Below, one piece after another: positions 37,683-46,329 of a stretch of DNA of 64,000 nucleotides (the stretch's first letter is position 1; each line of letters begins with the position of its first letter). The DNA is from Micromonospora foliorum (GTDB taxonomy: Bacteria; Actinomycetota; Actinomycetes; Mycobacteriales; Micromonosporaceae): NCBI RefSeq assembly GCF_022229015.1, contig NZ_JAKKFF010000045.1, positions 1 to 64,000 on the forward strand, given 5' to 3'. The notes under the pieces are model-generated. The model was not told the DNA's origin. It made no database searches and saw nothing but the letters and a program-made list of their open reading frames with translations. Made by a program: the position numbers and the translations under genes.

Positions 37683-40600
37683 TCACTGCTGCCCGGGCGA
37701 TTCGTCCGGCAGAGAGAGCATGTGCGACTGACGTTCGCCCGCGGACAGATTTCGGAACACCCGGTGCCGGGCTCGGCTCCGAAGGTCGTCAATGTCGGGC
37801 TGAACCGGCCAGAGTCGGGCCGACTTGTCCAGCGAGGCGGTGAGCAGCGTCTGCCCGTCGGCCGACCAGGCGACCGACGTCACCCGATCCACGTGTACGC
37901 CGACCACCCGCGGCTCCGCGTCGTCCAGCGCGCTCCAGACCCGGACGGTGCGGTCGTAGGAGCCGGTGGCGATCTGGTCGCCGGACGGCGACCAGGCGAC
38001 CGTTCGTACCCGCCCTTCGTGGCCTTCCAGGGTCCGGATGTGCCGGCCGGTGCGGGGTGCCCAAATCCGGGAGGTCCAGTCCGCGGAGCAGGTGACGACG
38101 AACTGTTCGTCCGGCGACCAGGCCACGCCGTCCACCCAGTTGTGGTGGCCGCGAAGGACGGCGAGTTCCTCGCCGGTGGAGCTGTCCCAGACCCGGGCGG
38201 TACGGTCGTCCGAGGTCGTGGCGATCATCCGCCCACTCGGCGACCAGGCGACGCGGACCACCCAGTCGCTGTGGCCGCGCAGTTGCAGCAGTCGACGGCC
38301 GGTCGTGGCGTTCCAGATCGAGGCCGTGCCGTCCCGGCAGGCCGTGGCGATCCGCGTGTTGTCCGGAGCCCACATGAGGCCCTCGCAGATCGTCTCTTCG
38401 TCCAGCCGGCGGTATGGCTGGAGGCTGTCCGGGCGCCACAGTTGCACCGAGCCGTCGTTCGAGCACGAGCCGAGGCGCTGCCCGTCGGGTGCCCACGCCA
38501 CCCCCCAGACGGTGCCGGCGTGCCCGGTGAAGGTGCTGCCGACCCCGGACGCCACGTTCCAGACCCGGACCGACCCGTCGTCCGAGGCGGTCGCGACCCG
38601 GGACCCGTCCGCGGCCCACGCCGCCGCGCGGACCCCGCCGGTGTGCCCGGTGAACGCCTGTCGTTCGGCGCCGCGGGGCAGTATCGACCAGACCCGCGCG
38701 GTGTGATCGCTGGAGGCCGAGGCGAGCGCGGTGCCGTCGGGTGACCAGGCCACGCCCCACACGGCGTCCTCGTGACCGCGCAGCGCGGCGACCTCCCGGG
38801 CGTCGCTGACGTCCCAGATCCGTACGGTGCGGTCGCTGGAGGCGGAGGCCAGCGACCGTCCGTCGGGTGACCAGGACACGTCCCAGACGAAATCGGTGTG
38901 CCCACGGATCAGCAGCAGTTGACGGCCGTCGGTGACATCCCAGATCCGGATCGTCTGGTCGCCCGAGGCCGTGGCGAGCCGTCGCCCGTCCGGGCACCAC
39001 GACAGGCCCTCGATGAAGTCGGTGTGCCCCCGCAGCACGGTCTGCTGCTCACCGGTGGCGAAGTCCCACACGACGGCGGTGCGGTCGTGCGACGTTGAGG
39101 CGAGCAGCGTGCCGTCCGGTGACCAGGCGAGACCGTAGACGTCGCCGGTGTGCCCGCGCAGGGTCGCCGTGTGGTCGCCGGTGTCCGTCCGCCACACGTG
39201 GATGTGGTGGTCCTGTGCGCCTGCGGCGACGTGCTCGCCGTCCGGCGACCAGGCCATGCCACGGATCAGGTCGTCGGCGCCGTAGAGGGTCGGCGGCGGG
39301 TCGTCCGCGCCCACCCGCCACAACTTGACCGTACGGTCCCGGGAACCGCTCGCGACGCGGCGCGAGTCGGGTGCCCAGGCGATGGCCTCCACCATGGCGT
39401 CGTGACCGGTGAACTCGGCGATCGTCCGGCCGGAGTCGGGGTCCCACACGCGGATGGAGTTGTCCCGGGAGCCGGTGGCGATCAGGCGGCCGTCCGGGGA
39501 CCAGGCGATCGACCGTACGGTGTCGGTGTGCCCGGAGAGCACCCGTCGCAGGTGGCTGAAGGCGAGCGCGGACATGAGGGCGCGTTCGATCAGCGGCGTG
39601 ATGGGCGCCTCGGCGATCGCCGCGATGGAAAGCAGGATCGACAGCTCCGGGAACCGTTCGGCATTGGCGAGGACGTACCGGCCGATGTTCTCCGACACGC
39701 GACGCAGGAAGGCCAGGTCCCGGCGCTTCGACTGCTCGATCAGGGCCCGGACCACCTCGCTCGCCTGGCCGAGTGCCTCCAGGCCGGTGAGCCACTGCTC
39801 GGCCAGCACCAGCCGCTGCCCGGTCAGGAGGTAGTCGTCGCTGCGCCCGGAGTGCTGCCAGTCGGCGGCCCACCGCTCCAACTCGGAGCGCCGACGGAGG
39901 TGCTCGGCGCGCGTCTCGACCTCCTGCCGCAGCGGCGCCCAGAGTCGGAACAGCGACTCGTGCGCCACCTCCACGACCGGTTCGCCGTCCTGGACCTTGC
40001 TGACCAGCAGCCTCGCGTCGACGAAAGCGGCGACGATACGGCGCTGCTCGGAGCTCAGCTCCCGAAGAGCTACCGGTCGTTTGGTCGCCTCGCTCGAGTC
40101 GAGCGAGACGAACCGCAGCAGGGTCGTCAGGATCGGGGCGATGCCGCCTTCCCCGCGTAGCTCGGTGACGACCTGGTCGGCCTGCCGGGTGAGTGCGCCA
40201 CCGACCCCGCCGGTGGCGAGGTAGGCCTTCAGGCTCACCGCGGCTCCGGGCCGGACCTCGAAGAAGAGCTCCTGCAACAGGTACGCCAACAGCGGCAGCG
40301 CGTCGGTCGTGCCGACGTCGGCGATGATCCGGTTGACGACCAACGGCTCGAACGTCATGCCGGCGATCCGGGCCGGCTCCTCGATGATGGCAGTGAGGTA
40401 CTCCGTCTTGATGGCACCGATCGCGACGGGGTTCTGAAACAGCGCCGCCATGTCGCTGTCGAGGAACTGCGCGAGGTATTCGATGCGCATGCTGGCGATC
40501 ACCGACAACCGGGAGTCGGCGGCCAACAGGCGCTCGACGATCTCGAGGAACAGGTGCCGATCGCTCTCGCCGGAGAGCGTGAACAGCTCCTCCAACTGGT

Positions 40601-41252
40601 CGATCACCAAGAGCACGTGGCCGAACCGGCGTCCCATTCCTCGGCGGATCTCGGCGACGTAGTTCGCCGCGCTGACCGGGTTTTCGCGTATCGCCCGGAC
40701 AATGACCGGTATGGCGACCGGCTCCGGGAGCGCCTCGGTGATGGCCTTGGCCAGATTCGTCACCGGTGCGCTGCCCGGATTGATCGTGGGCAGGTTGATC
40801 CACCGCCGGGTCTTGAGCGTCGGAACGACACCTGCCTGCACGAGCGAGGACTTCCCGCCGCCGGACGCGCCAACCACCACCAGCAGCCGCTCCCGAGGGT
40901 CCGCCGAAGCGGCGAGCATCCGCCGGACGATGTCCGAGATCTGCTGGTCCCGACCGAAGAAGACGGCCGAGTCCTCCTCCCGGAAGGGCTCCAACCCCGG
41001 GTACGGCGGCCGGCGCGGGTCCCAGTCGGAGCGTTTCGCCTTGGGATTCGCCGCCACGTGGAGAACGACCTGCCCGACGACGAGGAGAACCACGATCACG
41101 ACGAACGCCGGAATCGCCACAGACTGCAGGACCCGCAAATAGGTGGGCGGTTCGCTCAGGTTCGTCAGATAGTTGCCGATCAGACCGAGCAGGCTCGTGG
41201 CCAGAATCAGCGCGACATTGAGATACAGCGCGAGTGCACGTTGTCTCTTCAC
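37683..41252 (-). CDS. Membrane-anchored STAND-type NTPase with 14 WD40 repeats
   Basis: A 1189-residue signalling scaffold. Two membrane helices at about 9-28 and 42-66. Then PYPGLEPFREEDSAVFFGRD, the hallmark opening of novel STAND NTPases, Walker A VVGASGGGKSS at 127-137 and Walker B LLVIDQLEELF near 215. A helical region follows to about 570. WD40 repeats then run to the end; I count 14 (each with H-x5-V-x3-W-S-x-DG), enough for two seven-bladed propellers. Such proteins sense a ligand with the propeller and oligomerise by NTP binding. The GTG has CGGAG 6 bases upstream. No separate effector domain is seen. Confidence 0.9.
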   Translation of the reverse strand: MKRQRALALYLNVALILATSLLGLIGNYLTNLSEPPTYLRVLQSVAIPAFVVIVVLLVVGQVVLHVAANPKAKRSDWDPRRPPYPGLEPFREEDSAVFFGRDQQISDIVRRMLAASADPRERLLVVVGASGGGKSSLVQAGVVPTLKTRRWINLPTINPGSAPVTNLAKAITEALPEPVAIPVIVRAIRENPVSAANYVAEIRRGMGRRFGHVLLVIDQLEELFTLSGESDRHLFLEIVERLLAADSRLSVIASMRIEYLAQFLDSDMAALFQNPVAIGAIKTEYLTAIIEEPARIAGMTFEPLVVNRIIADVGTTDALPLLAYLLQELFFEVRPGAAVSLKAYLATGGVGGALTRQADQVVTELRGEGGIAPILTTLLRFVSLDSSEATKRPVALRELSSEQRRIVAAFVDARLLVSKVQDGEPVVEVAHESLFRLWAPLRQEVETRAEHLRRRSELERWAADWQHSGRSDDYLLTGQRLVLAEQWLTGLEALGQASEVVRALIEQSKRRDLAFLRRVSENIGRYVLANAERFPELSILLSIAAIAEAPITPLIERALMSALAFSHLRRVLSGHTDTVRSIAWSPDGRLIATGSRDNSIRVWDPDSGRTIAEFTGHDAMVEAIAWAPDSRRVASGSRDRTVKLWRVGADDPPPTLYGADDLIRGMAWSPDGEHVAAGAQDHHIHVWRTDTGDHTATLRGHTGDVYGLAWSPDGTLLASTSHDRTAVVWDFATGEQQTVLRGHTDFIEGLSWCPDGRRLATASGDQTIRIWDVTDGRQLLLIRGHTDFVWDVSWSPDGRSLASASSDRTVRIWDVSDAREVAALRGHEDAVWGVAWSPDGTALASASSDHTARVWSILPRGAERQAFTGHTGGVRAAAWAADGSRVATASDDGSVRVWNVASGVGSTFTGHAGTVWGVAWAPDGQRLGSCSNDGSVQLWRPDSLQPYRRLDEETICEGLMWAPDNTRIATACRDGTASIWNATTGRRLLQLRGHSDWVVRVAWSPSGRMIATTSDDRTARVWDSSTGEELAVLRGHHNWVDGVAWSPDEQFVVTCSADWTSRIWAPRTGRHIRTLEGHEGRVRTVAWSPSGDQIATGSYDRTVRVWSALDDAEPRVVGVHVDRVTSVAWSADGQTLLTASLDKSARLWPVQPDIDDLRSRARHRVFRNLSAGERQSHMLSLPDESPGQQ

Positions 41253-41445
41253 GCCGACTCCGAGTCCAACAGGACGTGCCCCAGAGGCGAACCCCGTGCC
41301 GCCGTCGTCAGTGCACCGGGAGCCGAGAATGCGTACGCCTCGCTCATGGTATCGCTTCGATGTGCCAGCGGCGCAAGGCGACATGTGTCGCCAAGCCGTC
41401 CTGGGCGCCCTGGCCGACACGGCACCCGGTGGGCGGCAGACCGTG

Positions 41446-42219
41446 TCAGCGAGCGGTCCCGCCGTTGTGTCGGATCCGGCAGCGCCGGCCAAACTCGGCC
41501 AGGAGAGCCAGGTCCAGCGGGCTGCGGGCGGTGTGCTGTTCGAAGTGCCATTGAACGCCGAGCACGAACCGGTGTGGCCGGTCGACGGCGATGGCTTCGA
41601 TCACGCCGTCGGGCGCGACCGCTTCGATGCCGACGCTGGTCGGCAGCCGGTCGACGATCTGCGAGTGTTGGGAGTTGACCATGAACTCCGCGTCGGGCGG
41701 CTGGCCGAGCAGATTGGCGAGGTGGCCGTCGGGGATGAGGGTGACCGGGTGGGCCGGGCCCCACCGGTCGTCGTTCTCATCGGGTAGCCGACGGTGGCTA
41801 CCGGTGGGATCGGTCTCGCGCAGCAGCCCGCCGCTGTGCACGGCGATCTCCTGCATCCCCCGGCAGCTGCCCAGCACCGGTAGGTCGGGCAGGTGGGCCG
41901 CGGCGGCGAGCAGCGCGCCGGCGACGGCATCGCGCGCAGGGTCGTAGGCGCGGTCCGGCTGGATCGGTGTGGTGGTGTCGAAACTGGCCGGGTGCAGGAA
42001 GGACGGACCACCGGGCAGTACGAGGCCGTCGAGGACCGACAGGATGGCGCCGGCATTGTCCGGCTCGGTGGCCGGGATCAGAACGGCGGCAACGTCGGCA
42101 TGCCGAGCGAGTTGACGTACGACCGTCCTGTTGACGTGTGAGTAGGTGGTGCCGGTGGCGCTCTGACTGCTACAGGCAAGCACGCCGACGACGGGTGCGC
42201 TACCTGTTGGTGATCTCAC
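41446..42219 (-). CDS. Class I glutamine amidotransferase-like / gamma-glutamyl-gamma-aminobutyrate hydrolase family (PuuD-like)
   Basis: A 257-residue single-domain hydrolase. Nucleophile Cys119 in VLGSCRGMQEIAVHSGG; the partner His is in FMVNSQHSQIV and the C-terminal VLGVQWHFE. The opening VVGVLACSS is family-typical. Members cleave gamma-glutamyl amide bonds (for example gamma-Glu-GABA). The GTG start was chosen because homology begins right after it and GAGAGG lies upstream; the open frame extends another 57 codons without family similarity. It is divergent from the ATP-grasp gene 104 bases away, suggesting shared control. Confidence 0.82.
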   Translation of the reverse strand: MRSPTGSAPVVGVLACSSQSATGTTYSHVNRTVVRQLARHADVAAVLIPATEPDNAGAILSVLDGLVLPGGPSFLHPASFDTTTPIQPDRAYDPARDAVAGALLAAAAHLPDLPVLGSCRGMQEIAVHSGGLLRETDPTGSHRRLPDENDDRWGPAHPVTLIPDGHLANLLGQPPDAEFMVNSQHSQIVDRLPTSVGIEAVAPDGVIEAIAVDRPHRFVLGVQWHFEQHTARSPLDLALLAEFGRRCRIRHNGGTAR

Positions 42220-42322
42220 GTGGTCAGCCTCTCGCCCTGACGCGACAAACGGCGGTGACCACGCGGCGGCGGGCGGTTCACTGCCATCGATGACCCCTCT
42301 ATCCTCGAGGCGACGGGAGCAG

Positions 42323-43798
42323 ATGGGAATACAGATGCGATCATCGCAATCCCGGAAAGGACCAGGTCCGCAGCGGCTGGCGGCGGACATTCTCCACGGC
42401 GACTCGGAACTACACGCGCAGAAGGAAGCGACGAAGGATCACGGGGCGTGGACCATCGCTCGGCGGGCTGTCCTGTTCGACGACTACAGCGCAATCCGAC
42501 TCATGAATCAGATCCCGTATCCGGACGGGTTTCAACTCAGAGCCCGGCTGCGCGCCGGAGGCGACGACATCATCGTCTGTCGGCCACGGCCACCAGCGGG
42601 ATTCGACGAGTACTACTCAGGGCGCCTCGGGCTGGGTGATCCGGTCTGGTTGCATCCCGACTCCGCGACCGACCTGTGTTCGGCGGCGTGGAGCGACAGC
42701 CGTATATCGGCGGCCCTGGTCGAGGCCGCTCGCGGCGGCGCTTATCTGCATCCTTACCACGCGTCCGAGGCGGCGTGGCAGCTCGCTGATCGCCTGTCCC
42801 GTGCCGCCCATGTGTCGGTGCCAGTGCTCGGGCCGCCGGCCCGCTTGTGTCAGTTGGCGAATGACAAGTCCTGGTTCCTCAGTACGGTCGCGGACCTGCT
42901 CGGCGCCGAGGCCATCCCCCGGCTGCGGGTGACGCGCCGCCTCGCCGACGTCCCGGCCGCAATCGAGGAGATCTCCCGACACTCGCCCAAACTCGCCGTA
43001 CGGATACCGGATTCCGCCGGCGGTCTGGGCATGCGCGTCTTCGCCACTGACGTCCTGCGTCGACTCGATTGGCAGGCCCTCATTGCCTGGGCCGCTGACG
43101 TCTACCGCGATCTCGGTCTCCAAGATGACTCGGCCGTGCTGGTGACCAGCTGGGAGGAGACAATCGCCGCACCGAGCATCGAGGTGACGATAGCGCCGGG
43201 GGAGGGGGCGGCACCGATCTGCGGCCGGGTCATCGATCAGATCTTCACCGACGCCGACCGGTCCCAGTTCGGCGGCGGCGTCGCCGGCGCGCTTCCGCCC
43301 GAGATCGTGCGCCGCCTGCGCTCCCACGCTTCGACGATCGCGGTGCTCCTGCAAGCACTGGGATATCTCGGACGTCTGTCGTTCGACTTCATCGTCACCG
43401 GCCGGTCCTTCGCGGACGCGGACGTTCGGGTCGTCGACTGCAATGCCAGGTGGAGCGGCGGCTCGGTGCTGGGAGCCATGTTGGACCGCCTCTTTCCCAA
43501 CAGATCACGGCCGTACGCCTTCGGCGCCCTGCGGCATCCGCAGCTGCGTTCGATTCCGTTCGACGTCCTGATCGATCGTCTGGAAGGCAGGCTCTGGAAT
43601 CCGTCCACCGGGCGTGGTGATCTGCTCGTGCACAACGTCGGTCATCTCGCGGCGTCCGGGCGCGCCGACATCGTGGTGCTCGCGGACAGCGCCGAAACGG
43701 CCCGGCACCGCCTGGCAGACCTGTCCCGCTCGGTGGCGGACGGCACCGCCGCGCTGTTGCTCGCAGAAGACGCTGAAGCTGGCCCGGCTACCTCTTGA
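42323..43798 (+). CDS. ATP-grasp ligase-like protein
   Basis: About 491 residues. The N-terminal pre-ATP-grasp half contains LANDKSWFLSTVADLLGAEA, with the NDK motif seen in the PGM1-type peptide-ligase group. The ATP-grasp core shows KLAVRIPDSAGGLGMRVF (nucleotide-binding loop with Lys), SWEE, IEVTI and the metal-binding VVDCNARWSGGS. The family joins a carboxylate to an amine through an acyl phosphate. With a divergent gamma-glutamyl-amide hydrolase beside it, a make/break pair for an amino-acid conjugate is possible. ATG with GGGAG just upstream was preferred; one 33 bases upstream and one 12 bases downstream are alternatives. Confidence 0.72.
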   Translation: MGIQMRSSQSRKGPGPQRLAADILHGDSELHAQKEATKDHGAWTIARRAVLFDDYSAIRLMNQIPYPDGFQLRARLRAGGDDIIVCRPRPPAGFDEYYSGRLGLGDPVWLHPDSATDLCSAAWSDSRISAALVEAARGGAYLHPYHASEAAWQLADRLSRAAHVSVPVLGPPARLCQLANDKSWFLSTVADLLGAEAIPRLRVTRRLADVPAAIEEISRHSPKLAVRIPDSAGGLGMRVFATDVLRRLDWQALIAWAADVYRDLGLQDDSAVLVTSWEETIAAPSIEVTIAPGEGAAPICGRVIDQIFTDADRSQFGGGVAGALPPEIVRRLRSHASTIAVLLQALGYLGRLSFDFIVTGRSFADADVRVVDCNARWSGGSVLGAMLDRLFPNRSRPYAFGALRHPQLRSIPFDVLIDRLEGRLWNPSTGRGDLLVHNVGHLAASGRADIVVLADSAETARHRLADLSRSVADGTAALLLAEDAEAGPATS

Positions 43799-43888
43799 GC
43801 AGTTCGATGAGCACGTTGTCGGCCTGCGCCAGGATCGGCGGGCCGTACACCGGGGTGGCCAGGGCCCGCCGGCAGTGGTCGAGCTAGG
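43788..43888 (-). pseudogene. 3' remnant of an unidentified gene cut by the IS481 insertion
   Basis: A leftward open frame encodes RALATPVYGPPILAQADN and then VLIELLKR before its stop, which overlaps the end of the ATP-grasp gene by about 10 bases. It has protein-like composition but the family is not recognised. Its upstream part is missing because the IS481 target site lies here and ISL3 debris follows on the other side. Confidence 0.4.
43883..43888. repeat. Left 6-bp target duplication of the IS481 element
   Basis: gctagg, identical to 46324-46329 on the far side of the element. Confidence 0.8.
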
Positions 43889-44069
43889 TGTGCTGTCCAG
43901 GGACGTTGGTCAACCTGGTGATGGGTGGTAGGCCGCCGGTGGCGGTGTGGGGTCGGTGGTGATTGTAGTGATGTAGGAAGGCCGGCAAGGCTTTCCTTCG
44001 GGCTTGTTCGCAGCTGTAGAACCGGGCGATGGCCCAGCCGTCGGTCAGGGTCCGGTGGAACCGTTCGAT
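43884..44069 (-). pseudogene. IS481 transposase, C-terminal part
   Basis: Encodes IERFHRTLTDGWAIARFYS and then the HHYNHHRPHTATGGLPP ending of the rve integrase core, including the region of the third catalytic acidic residue (the Glu of IERFHR). It is the downstream half of the split gene; its TAG stop is formed by the target duplication outside the IS end. Confidence 0.88.
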
Positions 44070-44082
44070 GCTCCTATGTTCG

Positions 44083-45153
44083 TCAAGTCGTTGTGCGGGT
44101 CAGTGCGGCATAAATCTCGCGGGCTAAGTAGCGCTTCAAGCATCGGATGATCTCTCGCTTGCTGAGTCCTTCGCTGGTGCGACGTGCAAGATATGCCTTG
44201 GTCGGAGCGTGCCGGCGAAGTCGCGTGATGATGATCATGTAGAGAGCTCGGTTCGCTTCGCGGTCGCCTCCTCGGCTGAGACGGTGCCGTCCGGTGGTCC
44301 GGCCGCTGCTGGCTGGCTGCGGCGCGACACCGCAAAGGCGGGCGAAGGCAGCTTCGTGCTTGAGTCGCTCGGGGTTGTCTCCTGCGGTTACTAGCATCTG
44401 TCCGGCGCTGTCGGGACCCACTCCAGGCAGGGCCAGCAGCTGAGGCGCTGCCTGCTCGACCAGGGCGACGAGTTGCTTGTCCAGGGCCTTGATCTGCTGG
44501 TCCAGAGCAGTCCATCGTTGAGCCAGTTCACGTAAGGCTGTCTTTGCTCCCGCCAGGAGCAGGTGCTGTGGTGCCGCGACGAGTTGGACCAAGTCACTGG
44601 CCTCCGGACGTAGGCTGGCGCAGCGTTTGATCAGGTTCCGGCCGCTGAGGGTGCGTAGCTGTTCGCGGAGGGGGTCCGGAGCGGTGACAATGATCGCCTG
44701 AAGGGCGTTCATGGATTGAGTGCGAGCTTTGATCGCGGTGCTTCGCGTGATCCGCAGCATGCGGATCACCTCAACGGCTCCATCCTGAGTTTTCGGCTGT
44801 GCAGTGGCGACTTCGGATAGCACGCTGCGAGCGGCTTGCTCGGCATCGAGTTCGTCGTTCTTGCCCGCGAGGTGTCGTGCCTGCCGGTTGGGCCGGTTGA
44901 CGTCGATCACCTTGATGCCTCGGCGGCGCAGAAGACGCGCCAGGCCGGCCCCGTAACTGCCTGGGCCCTCGACACCTGCAACGCGGACCTGCCCTTGTCC
45001 GACAGCCCAGTCTAAAAGCTCGAGTTGGCCCTGTTCGGTGGCGACGAACTCGCGATGGTCGAGCAGGCGTCCGTGCGCGTCAATCGTCGCTGCGTGATGT
45101 GTGTGCTTGTGCGTGTCGACGCCGAGGATGACATCGACTGAACTGGTCGTCAT
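44083..45153 (-). CDS. IS110-family transposase (DEDD/RuvC-like recombinase)
   Basis: A 356-residue protein. The N-terminal DEDD domain has ILGVDTHKHTHHAATIDAHG (first Asp), VAGVEGPGSYGAGLARLL (Glu) and KNDELDAEQAARS (Asp pair). The C-terminal Transposase_20 domain has LLALPGVGPDSAGQML and AFARLCGVAPQPASSGRTTG with the Ser characteristic of IS110 recombinases. The ATG was chosen over an upstream frame opening because homology begins at VDVILGVDTHK and GGGAGC lies nearby. It is full length and apparently intact. Confidence 0.93.
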   Translation of the reverse strand: MTTSSVDVILGVDTHKHTHHAATIDAHGRLLDHREFVATEQGQLELLDWAVGQGQVRVAGVEGPGSYGAGLARLLRRRGIKVIDVNRPNRQARHLAGKNDELDAEQAARSVLSEVATAQPKTQDGAVEVIRMLRITRSTAIKARTQSMNALQAIIVTAPDPLREQLRTLSGRNLIKRCASLRPEASDLVQLVAAPQHLLLAGAKTALRELAQRWTALDQQIKALDKQLVALVEQAAPQLLALPGVGPDSAGQMLVTAGDNPERLKHEAAFARLCGVAPQPASSGRTTGRHRLSRGGDREANRALYMIIITRLRRHAPTKAYLARRTSEGLSKREIIRCLKRYLAREIYAALTRTTT

Positions 45154-45220
45154 GCTGGTCGTGCTCCCGTCGTCGACCGGTGGCGGAGAGACGACATCCC
45201 GGCCGGGTGGGCGGACAAGC

Positions 45221-45340
45221 CTGTGACGGGGCTCTGCCAAGCTCCTATCAGGTCACGCGCCACCCGGTCGGTATGCCAGCGGGGCCGCGTCCCAGCCGGT
45301 CGACAAATCGAACGAAAGACACCGAGGGTCAGACTTTGCC
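45221..45340 (-). ncRNA. Candidate bridge RNA of the IS110 element
   Basis: Non-coding end upstream of the recombinase gene, where IS110 elements encode a bridge RNA. Read leftward it carries GGCAAAG and 19 bases later CGTTCGAT: the first nearly repeats the left target flank (GGCAAG), the second is the exact complement of the right flank (ATCGAACG). Further on, ATAGGAGC is identical to the element's own end and TCACAG is complementary to the other end (CTGTGA). The order (target loop, then donor loop) matches the known layout. The exact RNA ends are not determinable. Confidence 0.65.
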
Positions 45341-45386
45341 TGGGTCAGACCGGCAGGACGCGGCACCGGCGTCGATACTCACAGAC

Positions 45387-46199
45387 CTTGCCGTTGGTCT
45401 GTGGCCGGTAGGGGCGGGTCTTCTTCGGCCTGATCCCCAGCTCGGCGCAGGCGTCACGCCAGGCATGCGACTTGTAGGCCGAGCCGTTGTCGGACAGGAC
45501 GCGTTCGACTGTGACGCCGCGGGCGGCGAACCAGCCAACCGCGTTGCGTAACACCTCGATAGCCGTCGTGGCTTTCTCGTCGTCACGGATCTCGGCGTAG
45601 GCGACCCGGGAGTGATCATCGATGACGGTGTGCACGAACGCGGTACCTATCTGAGGTTCGTAGACGCTGTTGCGTGCCCCGGTGCGCCCAGCGGTGGCCT
45701 GGCGGTTGCGCTTGCCTTGCTGGCGGCCGACGAAACGCCAGCCGCCGCCGTCGGGAATGTTGCCGTACTTGGTGACATCCACGTGCAGCATCGCGCCCGG
45801 ATGCGGGTGCTCATAGCGGCGGACCGGTTCCCCGGTGATCCGGTCGATGTGTGACAGCCGATGCAACCGGCAGCGGGTCAGCACCGCGTGCACGGTTGAG
45901 GCCGGCATGCCCAGCAGCCCGCCGATCTGCACGGGTCCGAGGCGTTGTTTCCACCGCAAGTGCACGATCTTGCGCACCAGCGGACGCGGAGTCCGCGCCG
46001 GACTCCGGTGCGGCCGCGACGCACGGTCCTGCATGCCCTCGACGCCCTGCTGCCGATATCGCTGAGCCCACCGGTCCGCAGTGCGCCAGGACACCTCGAA
46101 AGGACGCGCCGCCGCAGCGACCGACCAACGCTCATCCACGATCAGACGCGCCAGGCGCAGACGCGCGCGAGGAGTCAAAGCAGCGTTAGCGTGGGACAT
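45387..46199 (-). pseudogene. IS481 transposase, N-terminal part
   Basis: Starts ATG with AGGAGG 6 bases before. Contains the N-terminal HTH pair (RLRLARLIVDERWSVAAAA, FEVSWRTADRWAQRY) and the first part of the rve integrase core: MLHVDVTKYGNIPDGGGW (Asp), VIDDHSRVAYAEI (Asp) and VLSDNGSAYKS. It ends at QTNGK, where the IS110 element enters; in the present sequence the frame then runs into about 10 foreign codons. Confidence 0.9.
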
Positions 46200-46323
46200 G
46201 AAGGCCTCCTGGTTGGCGGAGCGGTTCCTCGACAGCTCCACTCCACAACCGGAGGCCTTCACCTACCTACGACATCAAACCGTGTCGTCACACAACCTCA
46301 ACCAACCTCCCTGGACAGCACAG

Positions 46324-46329
46324 CTAGGC
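46324..46329. repeat. Right 6-bp target duplication of the IS481 element
   Basis: gctagg, a perfect copy of the six bases at the left end. Confidence 0.8.

What the first reader, a model, noticed from the sequence alone, without database searches (positions are those of the whole stretch)
44070..45386. IS110 element with a readable bridge-RNA logic matching its own insertion site
In the non-coding end, read leftward, CGTTCGAT is the exact complement of the right target flank ATCGAACG, and GGCAAAG nearly repeats the left flank GGCAAG. ATAGGAGC equals the element's terminal 8 bases and TCACAG complements its other end. Target and donor segments occur in the order known for IS621 bridge RNAs. 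This would explain the precise entry into the IS481 transposase gene.
Basis: partly seen in the sequence, partly recalled or inferred. Interest (0 to 1): 0.8.

Follow-up and report, generated by a model that had tools for sequence, protein, structure and literature searches.

The report
RNA-guided jumping gene inside another
A small bacterial jumping gene of the IS110 family carries a stretch of RNA code whose guide segments spell out the spot where it sits, the active-site codon of another jumping gene; the mechanism is already known, but relatives point to other preferred addresses, including the stop codons of ordinary genes.

Summary
The element is window 44068-45384 (minus strand, 1317 bp) and shares one core C with its target. 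It is IS110-group: an open 356-aa DEDD/Transposase_20 transposase, a 231-nt non-coding left end, a 15-bp right end. The left end encodes a predicted bridge RNA with four guides: LTG matches the left flank 8/9, RTG the right flank 6/8, LDG the right end 8/8, RDG complements the left end 6/6.

Across 34 distinct guide types (71 elements, this one included), guides match their own flanks better than permuted flanks (0 of 20,000 permutations); the result repeated on held-out relatives. Three of ten uninterrupted IS481 relatives read carry the predicted empty site.

The insertion falls directly before the catalytic glutamate codon (DD35E) of an IS481 transposase. The mechanism is the published bridge-RNA/seekRNA one, and ISEc21 is already reported at catalytic codons of IS3 transposases: a new member of a known kind.

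Less expected are the relatives. One clade carries guides reading CTGAC and sits at natural stop codons (TGA in the coding frame in 33 of 43 scorable insertions); another sits at TTGTCCAC sites. No RNA or activity was measured.

The parts
44068..45384 (-). IS110-group element, 1317 bp, sharing a single core C with the target (C at 45384 left, C at 44067 right)
   Evidence: Junctions read; ends recur in relatives; empty site in three IS481 relatives
44083..45153 (-). Transposase/recombinase CDS, 356 aa; DEDD domain and Transposase_20 domain; D13, E62, D100, D103 and S283 align with IS621 residues
45154..45384 (-). Non-coding left end (231 nt) encoding the predicted bridge RNA
45275..45370 (-). 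Target-binding hairpin: long stem (5' arm 45370-45344, 3' arm 45304-45275) closing the target loop
   Evidence: Fold z -4.43; arms fit their own partners across 34 guide types, 0 of 10000 permutations as stable
45332..45340 (-). Left target guide GGCAAAGTC (pairs with bottom strand of GGCAAGGTC, 8/9)
45309..45314 (-). Right target guide CGTTCG (complement of CGAACG)
45241..45248 (-). Left donor guide ATAGGAGC, identical to the element's right end
   Evidence: 8/8 in 71 of 72 parsed elements
45221..45226 (-). Right donor guide TCACAG, complement of the element's left end CTGTGA
   Evidence: 6/6 in 65 of 72 parsed elements
44068..44086 (-). Right end TTGACGAACATAGGAGCAT: left-donor sequence, overlapping the CDS stop; TTGACG lies 17 bp from GAGTAT in the predicted circle junction (possible junction promoter, inferred)
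43889..46322 (-). Host IS481 element with terminal inverted sequences, interrupted by the IS110 element directly before its catalytic Glu codon (D-35-E)
43883..43888 (.). 6-bp direct repeat GCTAGG at one IS481 end
46323..46328 (.). 6-bp direct repeat GCTAGG at the other IS481 end

Best explanation
This is an IS110-group insertion sequence that chose its site by a bridge RNA encoded in its left end. The target loop (LTG GGCAAAGUC, RTG CGUUCG) pairs with the two strands of GGCAAGGT[C]GAACG. The donor loop (LDG AUAGGAGC, RDG UCACAG) pairs with the joined element ends ATAGGAGCAT[C]TGTGA. The DEDD recombinase then exchanges strands at the shared core C, with no target duplication. The site it reads is the K-V-E codons of an IS481 transposase, so insertion separates the catalytic glutamate from the part before it. 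Sequence, boundaries, complementarity and covariation are shown; RNA production, circle formation and catalysis are inferred from IS621 and ISEc21.
For: Family and catalytic residues. Order and position of the four guides. Guide-flank concordance in 34 guide types: LT 8.06/9 against 4.74 permuted, RT 4.45/8 against 2.87, 0 of 20,000 permutations each. Held-out set of 15 guide types, 12 of them new: LT 8.02 against 4.67, RT 5.08 against 3.27, 0 of 20,000. Donor guides vary together with the ends (pairs 1-6/236-241). Target stem arms fit their own partners. Empty site in three of ten IS481 relatives. Sisters at least 90% identical in the gene, L120/L121 versus L122-L125, change guide and target together.
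Against: One copy in its genome, so its own specificity cannot be tested on a second insertion. One LTG mismatch; RTG pairing in relatives is modest (mean 4.45 of 8, down to 1 of 8 in L244). The own genome shows no exact GGCAARGTCGAACG but 253 sites within 2 mismatches (reversed-pattern control 120), so the guides alone do not explain why this site was taken. No Rfam match above threshold. The whole left end folds moderately (z -1.85, 6 of 200 shuffles as stable) and the donor half weakly (z -1.32, 21 of 200). The donor-guide counts are best-match scans without a permutation control, many elements share the same letters, and the covariation of left end with RDG would also fit an RNA stem. Parsing rules were tuned on the first set and dropped 9 of 81 elements there and 13 of 36 held out.
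Confidence: 0.93

Rival explanations
1. The guide-like strings are chance matches in GC-rich sequence, or copies of flanking DNA picked up by the left end.
Against: Fixed register and order shared with parsed relatives; permutation and held-out tests; Markov null; donor guides vary with the ends.
Confidence: 0.03
2. Target choice is by the protein or by DNA structure, and the left-end RNA acts only as a regulator or scaffold; guide similarity reflects past insertion sites.
For: No RNA binding or activity was measured here.
Against: Both strands of the target are matched by separated segments of one hairpin, and changes in guides accompany changes in sites among sisters. Published IS621 and ISEc21 experiments show that the RNA guides insertion (PMC11208160, PMC11187229; passages).
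Confidence: 0.03
3. The nested arrangement arose by recombination between two separate insertion-sequence copies, or by misassembly, rather than by direct targeted insertion.
For: The genome is a draft of 586 contigs; a related genome holds a rearranged IS481-IS110 remnant (L012); flanks of two copies in another genome look exchanged (L086, L087).
Against: Both IS481 ends with matching GCTAGG repeats, and the frame continues from V to E across the junction with the D-35-E spacing kept.
Confidence: 0.03

Closest known systems
IS621 and its bridge RNA (PMC11208160; PDB chain 8wt6_A)
   Same: DEDD plus Transposase_20 recombinase, long left end, two-loop RNA with LTG/RTG then LDG/RDG, order as found here
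   Different: Here the letter shared at both junctions is a single C rather than the CT dinucleotide core; the target is an IS481 transposase codon rather than REP elements; transposase similarity is remote (E 3e-10)
ISEc21 with its seekRNA (PMC11187229)
   Same: IS110-type, upstream non-coding RNA, transposase of about the same size (358 vs 356 aa), target inside a transposase gene at codons around a catalytic residue
   Different: ISEc21 targets the second D of certain IS3-family transposases; this element targets the E codon of an IS481-family transposase with other guides
IS1111-group elements such as IS4321/IS5075
   Same: DEDD elements with a target-specifying RNA; IS4321 and IS5075 target Tn21-family inverted repeats (seen as a reference title)
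   Different: RNA downstream of the gene and subterminal inverted repeats; not the layout here
ISCro4 (PDB 9t56)
   Same: Solved relative by sequence (E 7e-10)
   Different: Only remote similarity; target not examined here

Membership tests
IS110 family, IS110 group | DEDD (RuvC-like) and Transposase_20 domains | tested here: met
   Both Pfam models above cut-off
IS110 family, IS110 group | Catalytic D/E/D/D and serine | tested here: met
   Aligned to IS621: D13, E62, D100, D103, S283; the N-terminal part of that alignment is weak (10 bits); residue roles recalled
IS110 family, IS110 group | Long non-coding left end upstream of the gene, short right end | tested here: met
   231 nt against 15 nt
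IS110 family, IS110 group | No target-site duplication, short shared core | tested here: met
   One shared C
IS110 family, IS110 group | Structured RNA with target and donor guides matching flanks and ends | tested here: met
   By computation only:
IS110 family, IS110 group | RNA expressed and bound by the recombinase | not testable with these tools
   Needs RNA-seq or pull-down
IS110 family, IS110 group | Circular intermediate with junction promoter | tested here: inconclusive
   TTGACG-17 bp-GAGTAT across the predicted junction; circle not observed
IS1111 group | Non-coding RNA region downstream of the gene | tested here: not met
   Only 15 nt follow the CDS before the core

The most novel reading that the evidence does not exclude
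The IS110 lineage around this element has diversified by rewriting its bridge-RNA guides onto functionally constrained, recurring codon-level addresses. One clade (with this element) includes readers of conserved codons of other mobile-element genes: IS481, IS3, IS5-like and TnpB. Another clade reads the natural TGA stop codon plus its neighbours (guide NNCTGAC), so that it inserts beside genes without breaking them. A third reads TTGTCCAC sites resembling DnaA boxes. RNA-guided stop-codon targeting would be a new 'safe-harbour' strategy for a transposon.
Probability: 0.65. Interest if true: 0.7.

Novelty: new member of a known kind. Interest (0 to 1): 0.5.

Why it matters
The element is a clean natural example that bridge-RNA guides can be read from sequence alone and agree with the site. 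It and its relatives supply 46 distinct natural guide types with their flanks (34 in the first set, 12 more held out), and they suggest that guides settle on addresses that cannot easily mutate: catalytic codons of other transposases, or stop codons. If stop-codon targeting is confirmed, it would explain how such elements spread without harming the host, and would offer guides useful for tagging genes at their 3' ends.

Tried and rejected
Rfam scan of the locus: one irrelevant sub-threshold hit. Relatives in viral contigs: none confirmed. The genome-contig scan gave 8 loci of 39-58% identity, not analysed because the family genomes gave better sets. The plasmid search gave 1965 records, best 62% identity, not pursued.

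A junction pattern (ACSGGSAARGTCTGTGAG, 1 mismatch) in 298 order genomes, to find other insertions at the same IS481 codon: 14 hits including the window; none of the other 13 has a related transposase in the about 1.5 kb on each side, so no second insertion was found. L176, which looked promising, lies in a subtilase-like coding sequence by eye.

The first boundary model (TGACAG as element sequence) was rejected: guides and sites of L092 and L093 differ at those bases, and an uninterrupted relative carries the TGA. The first concordance score with a sliding register let scaffold CTGAC give false matches (three foreign flanks scored 7-8 with the window's guide), so it was replaced by a fixed register.

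Full report
Observation. On the minus strand the left junction reads ...ACGGCAAGGT[C]TGTGAGTATCG and the right junction ...TTGACGAACATAGGAGCAT[C]GAACGGTTCC. The CDS 45153-44083 encodes 356 aa with DEDD_Tnp_IS110 and Transposase_20 above cut-off. By phmmer the solved relatives are IS621 and ISCro4 transposases, and the DEDD residues and serine align (residue roles recalled; the N-terminal alignment is weak). 231 nt precede the gene and 15 nt follow it, the IS110-group layout.

Host site. The element lies in an IS481 element at 43889-46322 with inverted terminal sequences and 6-bp repeats GCTAGG. The left IS481 piece ends ...SDNG-(...)-TNGKV and the right piece begins ERFHRT; 35 residues separate the D of SDNG from that E, the DD35E spacing (motif recalled). 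The right piece matches rve_3. The insertion is thus directly before the codon of the catalytic glutamate. Of ten IS481 relatives read across this point, three (L152, L153, L157; 79-80% nucleotide identity) have GGCAAGGTCGAACG; seven differ by one to three bases, for example GGAAAAGTCGAGCG in L151.

Guides. In order: LTG GGCAAAGTC, RTG CGTTCG, LDG ATAGGAGC, RDG TCACAG (coordinates in parts). The target half folds strongly (z -4.43, 0 of 200 shuffles as stable); the donor half weakly (z -1.32, 21 of 200); the whole left end z -1.85, 6 of 200.

Relatives. A protein search at E<=1e-90 of 354 family genomes listed 117 places in 67 genomes, own copy included. I fetched 80 places and later the other 36 as a held-out set. 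With the window, 72 of 81 could be parsed (9 failed) and 71 were scored (L098 dropped: flank cut and N). The parsing rules were adjusted while looking at this first set. They form 34 distinct guide types, the window's among them. Mean match of LTG to own left flank is 8.06 of 9 against 4.74 for permuted pairs; RTG 4.45 of 8 against 2.87; 0 of 20,000 permutations reach either. 53 of the 71 elements match at 8 or 9 of 9 on the left. For the 16 types without the shared TGAC ending the contrast remains (7.53 against 4.19; 5.35 against 3.23). In the held-out set, with unchanged rules, 23 of 36 parsed, 15 types (12 not seen before): 8.02 against 4.67 and 5.08 against 3.27, again 0 of 20,000. Weak cases exist: a number of relatives pair only 2-3 of 8 RTG positions, L244 only 1, and L088 matches 3 of 9 on the left.

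Donor side. LDG equals the element's right end (8/8) in 71 of 72, with three variants (ATAGGAGC, ACAGGAGC, ATAGGGGC). RDG complements the left end (6/6) in 65 of 72, again in matching variants (TCACAG, TCACTG, TCTCTG, TCACCG, TCAACG). These are best-match scans without a permutation control. The consensus fold of 20 representatives pairs the same columns, 1-6 with 236-241, with double changes at three of them; this alone would also fit an RNA stem. The arms of the target stem fit their own partners better than others (-46.7 against -31.1 kcal/mol, 0 of 10,000 permutations).

Natural retargeting. Sisters at least 90% identical in the gene differ in guide and site together: L120/L121 carry CCGACTGAC and GTGGAT with sites GACTGA[C]CA; L122-L125 carry CCGCCTGAC and GTGCGAT with sites GCCTGA[C]G. 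On a protein tree of 45 guide types, the window element is the basal branch of a group (support 0.96) of TGTGAG-ended elements (target labels set by hand). In that group: L089-L091, L100 and L113 lie in IS3-type transposase genes at GDSYD or GDSFD/NALMEN (by eye; Pfam rve and rve_2 flanks tested for L089); L126-L129 split an IS5-like gene (HTH_Tnp_4 and DDE_Tnp_4 flanks tested for L126), while L099 and L108 have such a gene on the right flank only; L240 lies in a TnpB gene (OrfB_IS605 and Cas12f1-like_TNB flanks). L089-L091, and likewise L126-L129, have the same flanks, so they are not independent insertions as far as I can tell. Others of the group (L217, L234, L239, L241-L243) have targets I did not identify; L234 gave no Pfam match. 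Targeting of catalytic codons of another transposase is not new in itself: ISEc21 is reported at the second D of certain IS3-family transposases (PMC11187229, passages).

Stop-codon clade. Elements ending in AGTGAG or AGAGATG mostly sit at NNCTGA[C], with a guide of similar letters. Of 34 scorable insertions in the first set, the TGA lies in the upstream coding frame (highest GC3) in 25 (binomial p 2e-6 against 1/3, insertions taken as independent), and in 8 of 9 in the held-out set (p 1e-3); 10 of 43 do not fit. For ten upstream gene ends that I chose from the 19 printed, 8 give a Pfam domain that ends within two positions of the end of the profile, 0 to 29 residues before the stop (SEC-C, CLP_protease, 3HCDH, HATPase_c, GGDEF, RNase_II_C_S1, Aldo_ket_red, Beta-lactamase2), and 2 give none: these look like natural C-termini. 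For L124, the 29 other loci of the genus that were returned and read (91 of 101 genomes had a match) all have TGA at the corresponding place, 15 of them by extrapolating 1-35 bases beyond the alignment; 16 have TGAC; the closest (L185, 95%) is uninterrupted. I found no mention of stop-codon targeting: 'stop codon' does not occur in the main texts of PMC11208160 and PMC11187229, the one 'termination codon' in the latter refers to the transposase gene's own, and the searches (9, 10 and 0 papers; titles and abstract starts seen, passages of PMC2516522 and PMC11187229) showed nothing on it. This says nothing about papers outside that library.

DnaA-like group. Elements ending in GGTGAGATG or GTTGAGATG sit at TTGTCCA[C]AG or close variants, in several with a second such box just downstream. 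The likeness to actinobacterial DnaA boxes is recalled, not tested; a paper search for IS110 with 'DnaA box' listed 8 papers, none on this by title.

Verdict. The window element is a new member of a known kind, with a confirmed and readable bridge-RNA logic. What could be new lies in the pattern of addresses chosen by its relatives. Papers: PMC11208160 (abstract, outline, passages, sections 12 and 21), PMC11187229 (passages, section 13), PMC12500396 and PMC2516522 (passages), PMC11208158 (search listing only).

Noticed in passing
e.g. L104, L116, L118, L124 (left flank of each element): A clade of IS110 elements sits at natural TGA stop codons, with bridge-RNA guides that read NNCTGAC.
   Followed up: yes
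L070-L077, L079, L083, L085, L149, L233: A sister clade sits at TTGTCCAC sites (or close variants) resembling DnaA boxes, in several with two boxes in tandem; guides carry TTGTCCAC or TTATCCAC.
   Followed up: partly
L240 (flanks 753-1160 and 2496-2975, minus): An IS110 element inserted in a TnpB gene just before the codons for TIVIEDL: one RNA-guided system inside another.
   Followed up: partly
L012 1233-1600: Another species of the genus holds a rearranged remnant: 5' part of an IS481 gene (62% aa) joined to 100 bp of IS110 DNA 98% identical to the window element.
   Followed up: partly
L086 and L087 (same contig, opposite strands, about 38 kb apart): The left flank of one copy and the right flank of the other together read as one IS3-type transposase (GDALD/NALMES, by eye): the flanks look exchanged, as by inversion between the two IS110 copies.
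   Followed up: partly
L092, L114, L119, L132, L136, L137, L219, L223, L225, L227, L232: A group with guide GGCAGAC sits repeatedly at GGTCGRCGGCAGA[C]GGGAT, with similar GC-rich, palindrome-like DNA upstream in several; possibly a repeated extragenic element.
   Followed up: no
window 37683-41492 (-): Large protein with a P-loop NTPase-like stretch followed by many WD40-like repeats (by eye), a possible STAND-type protein.
   Followed up: no
window 42290-43798 (+): Protein with a marginal PreAtp-grasp match (27.4 against cut-off 27.5 bits) beside the nested insertion sequences.
   Followed up: no
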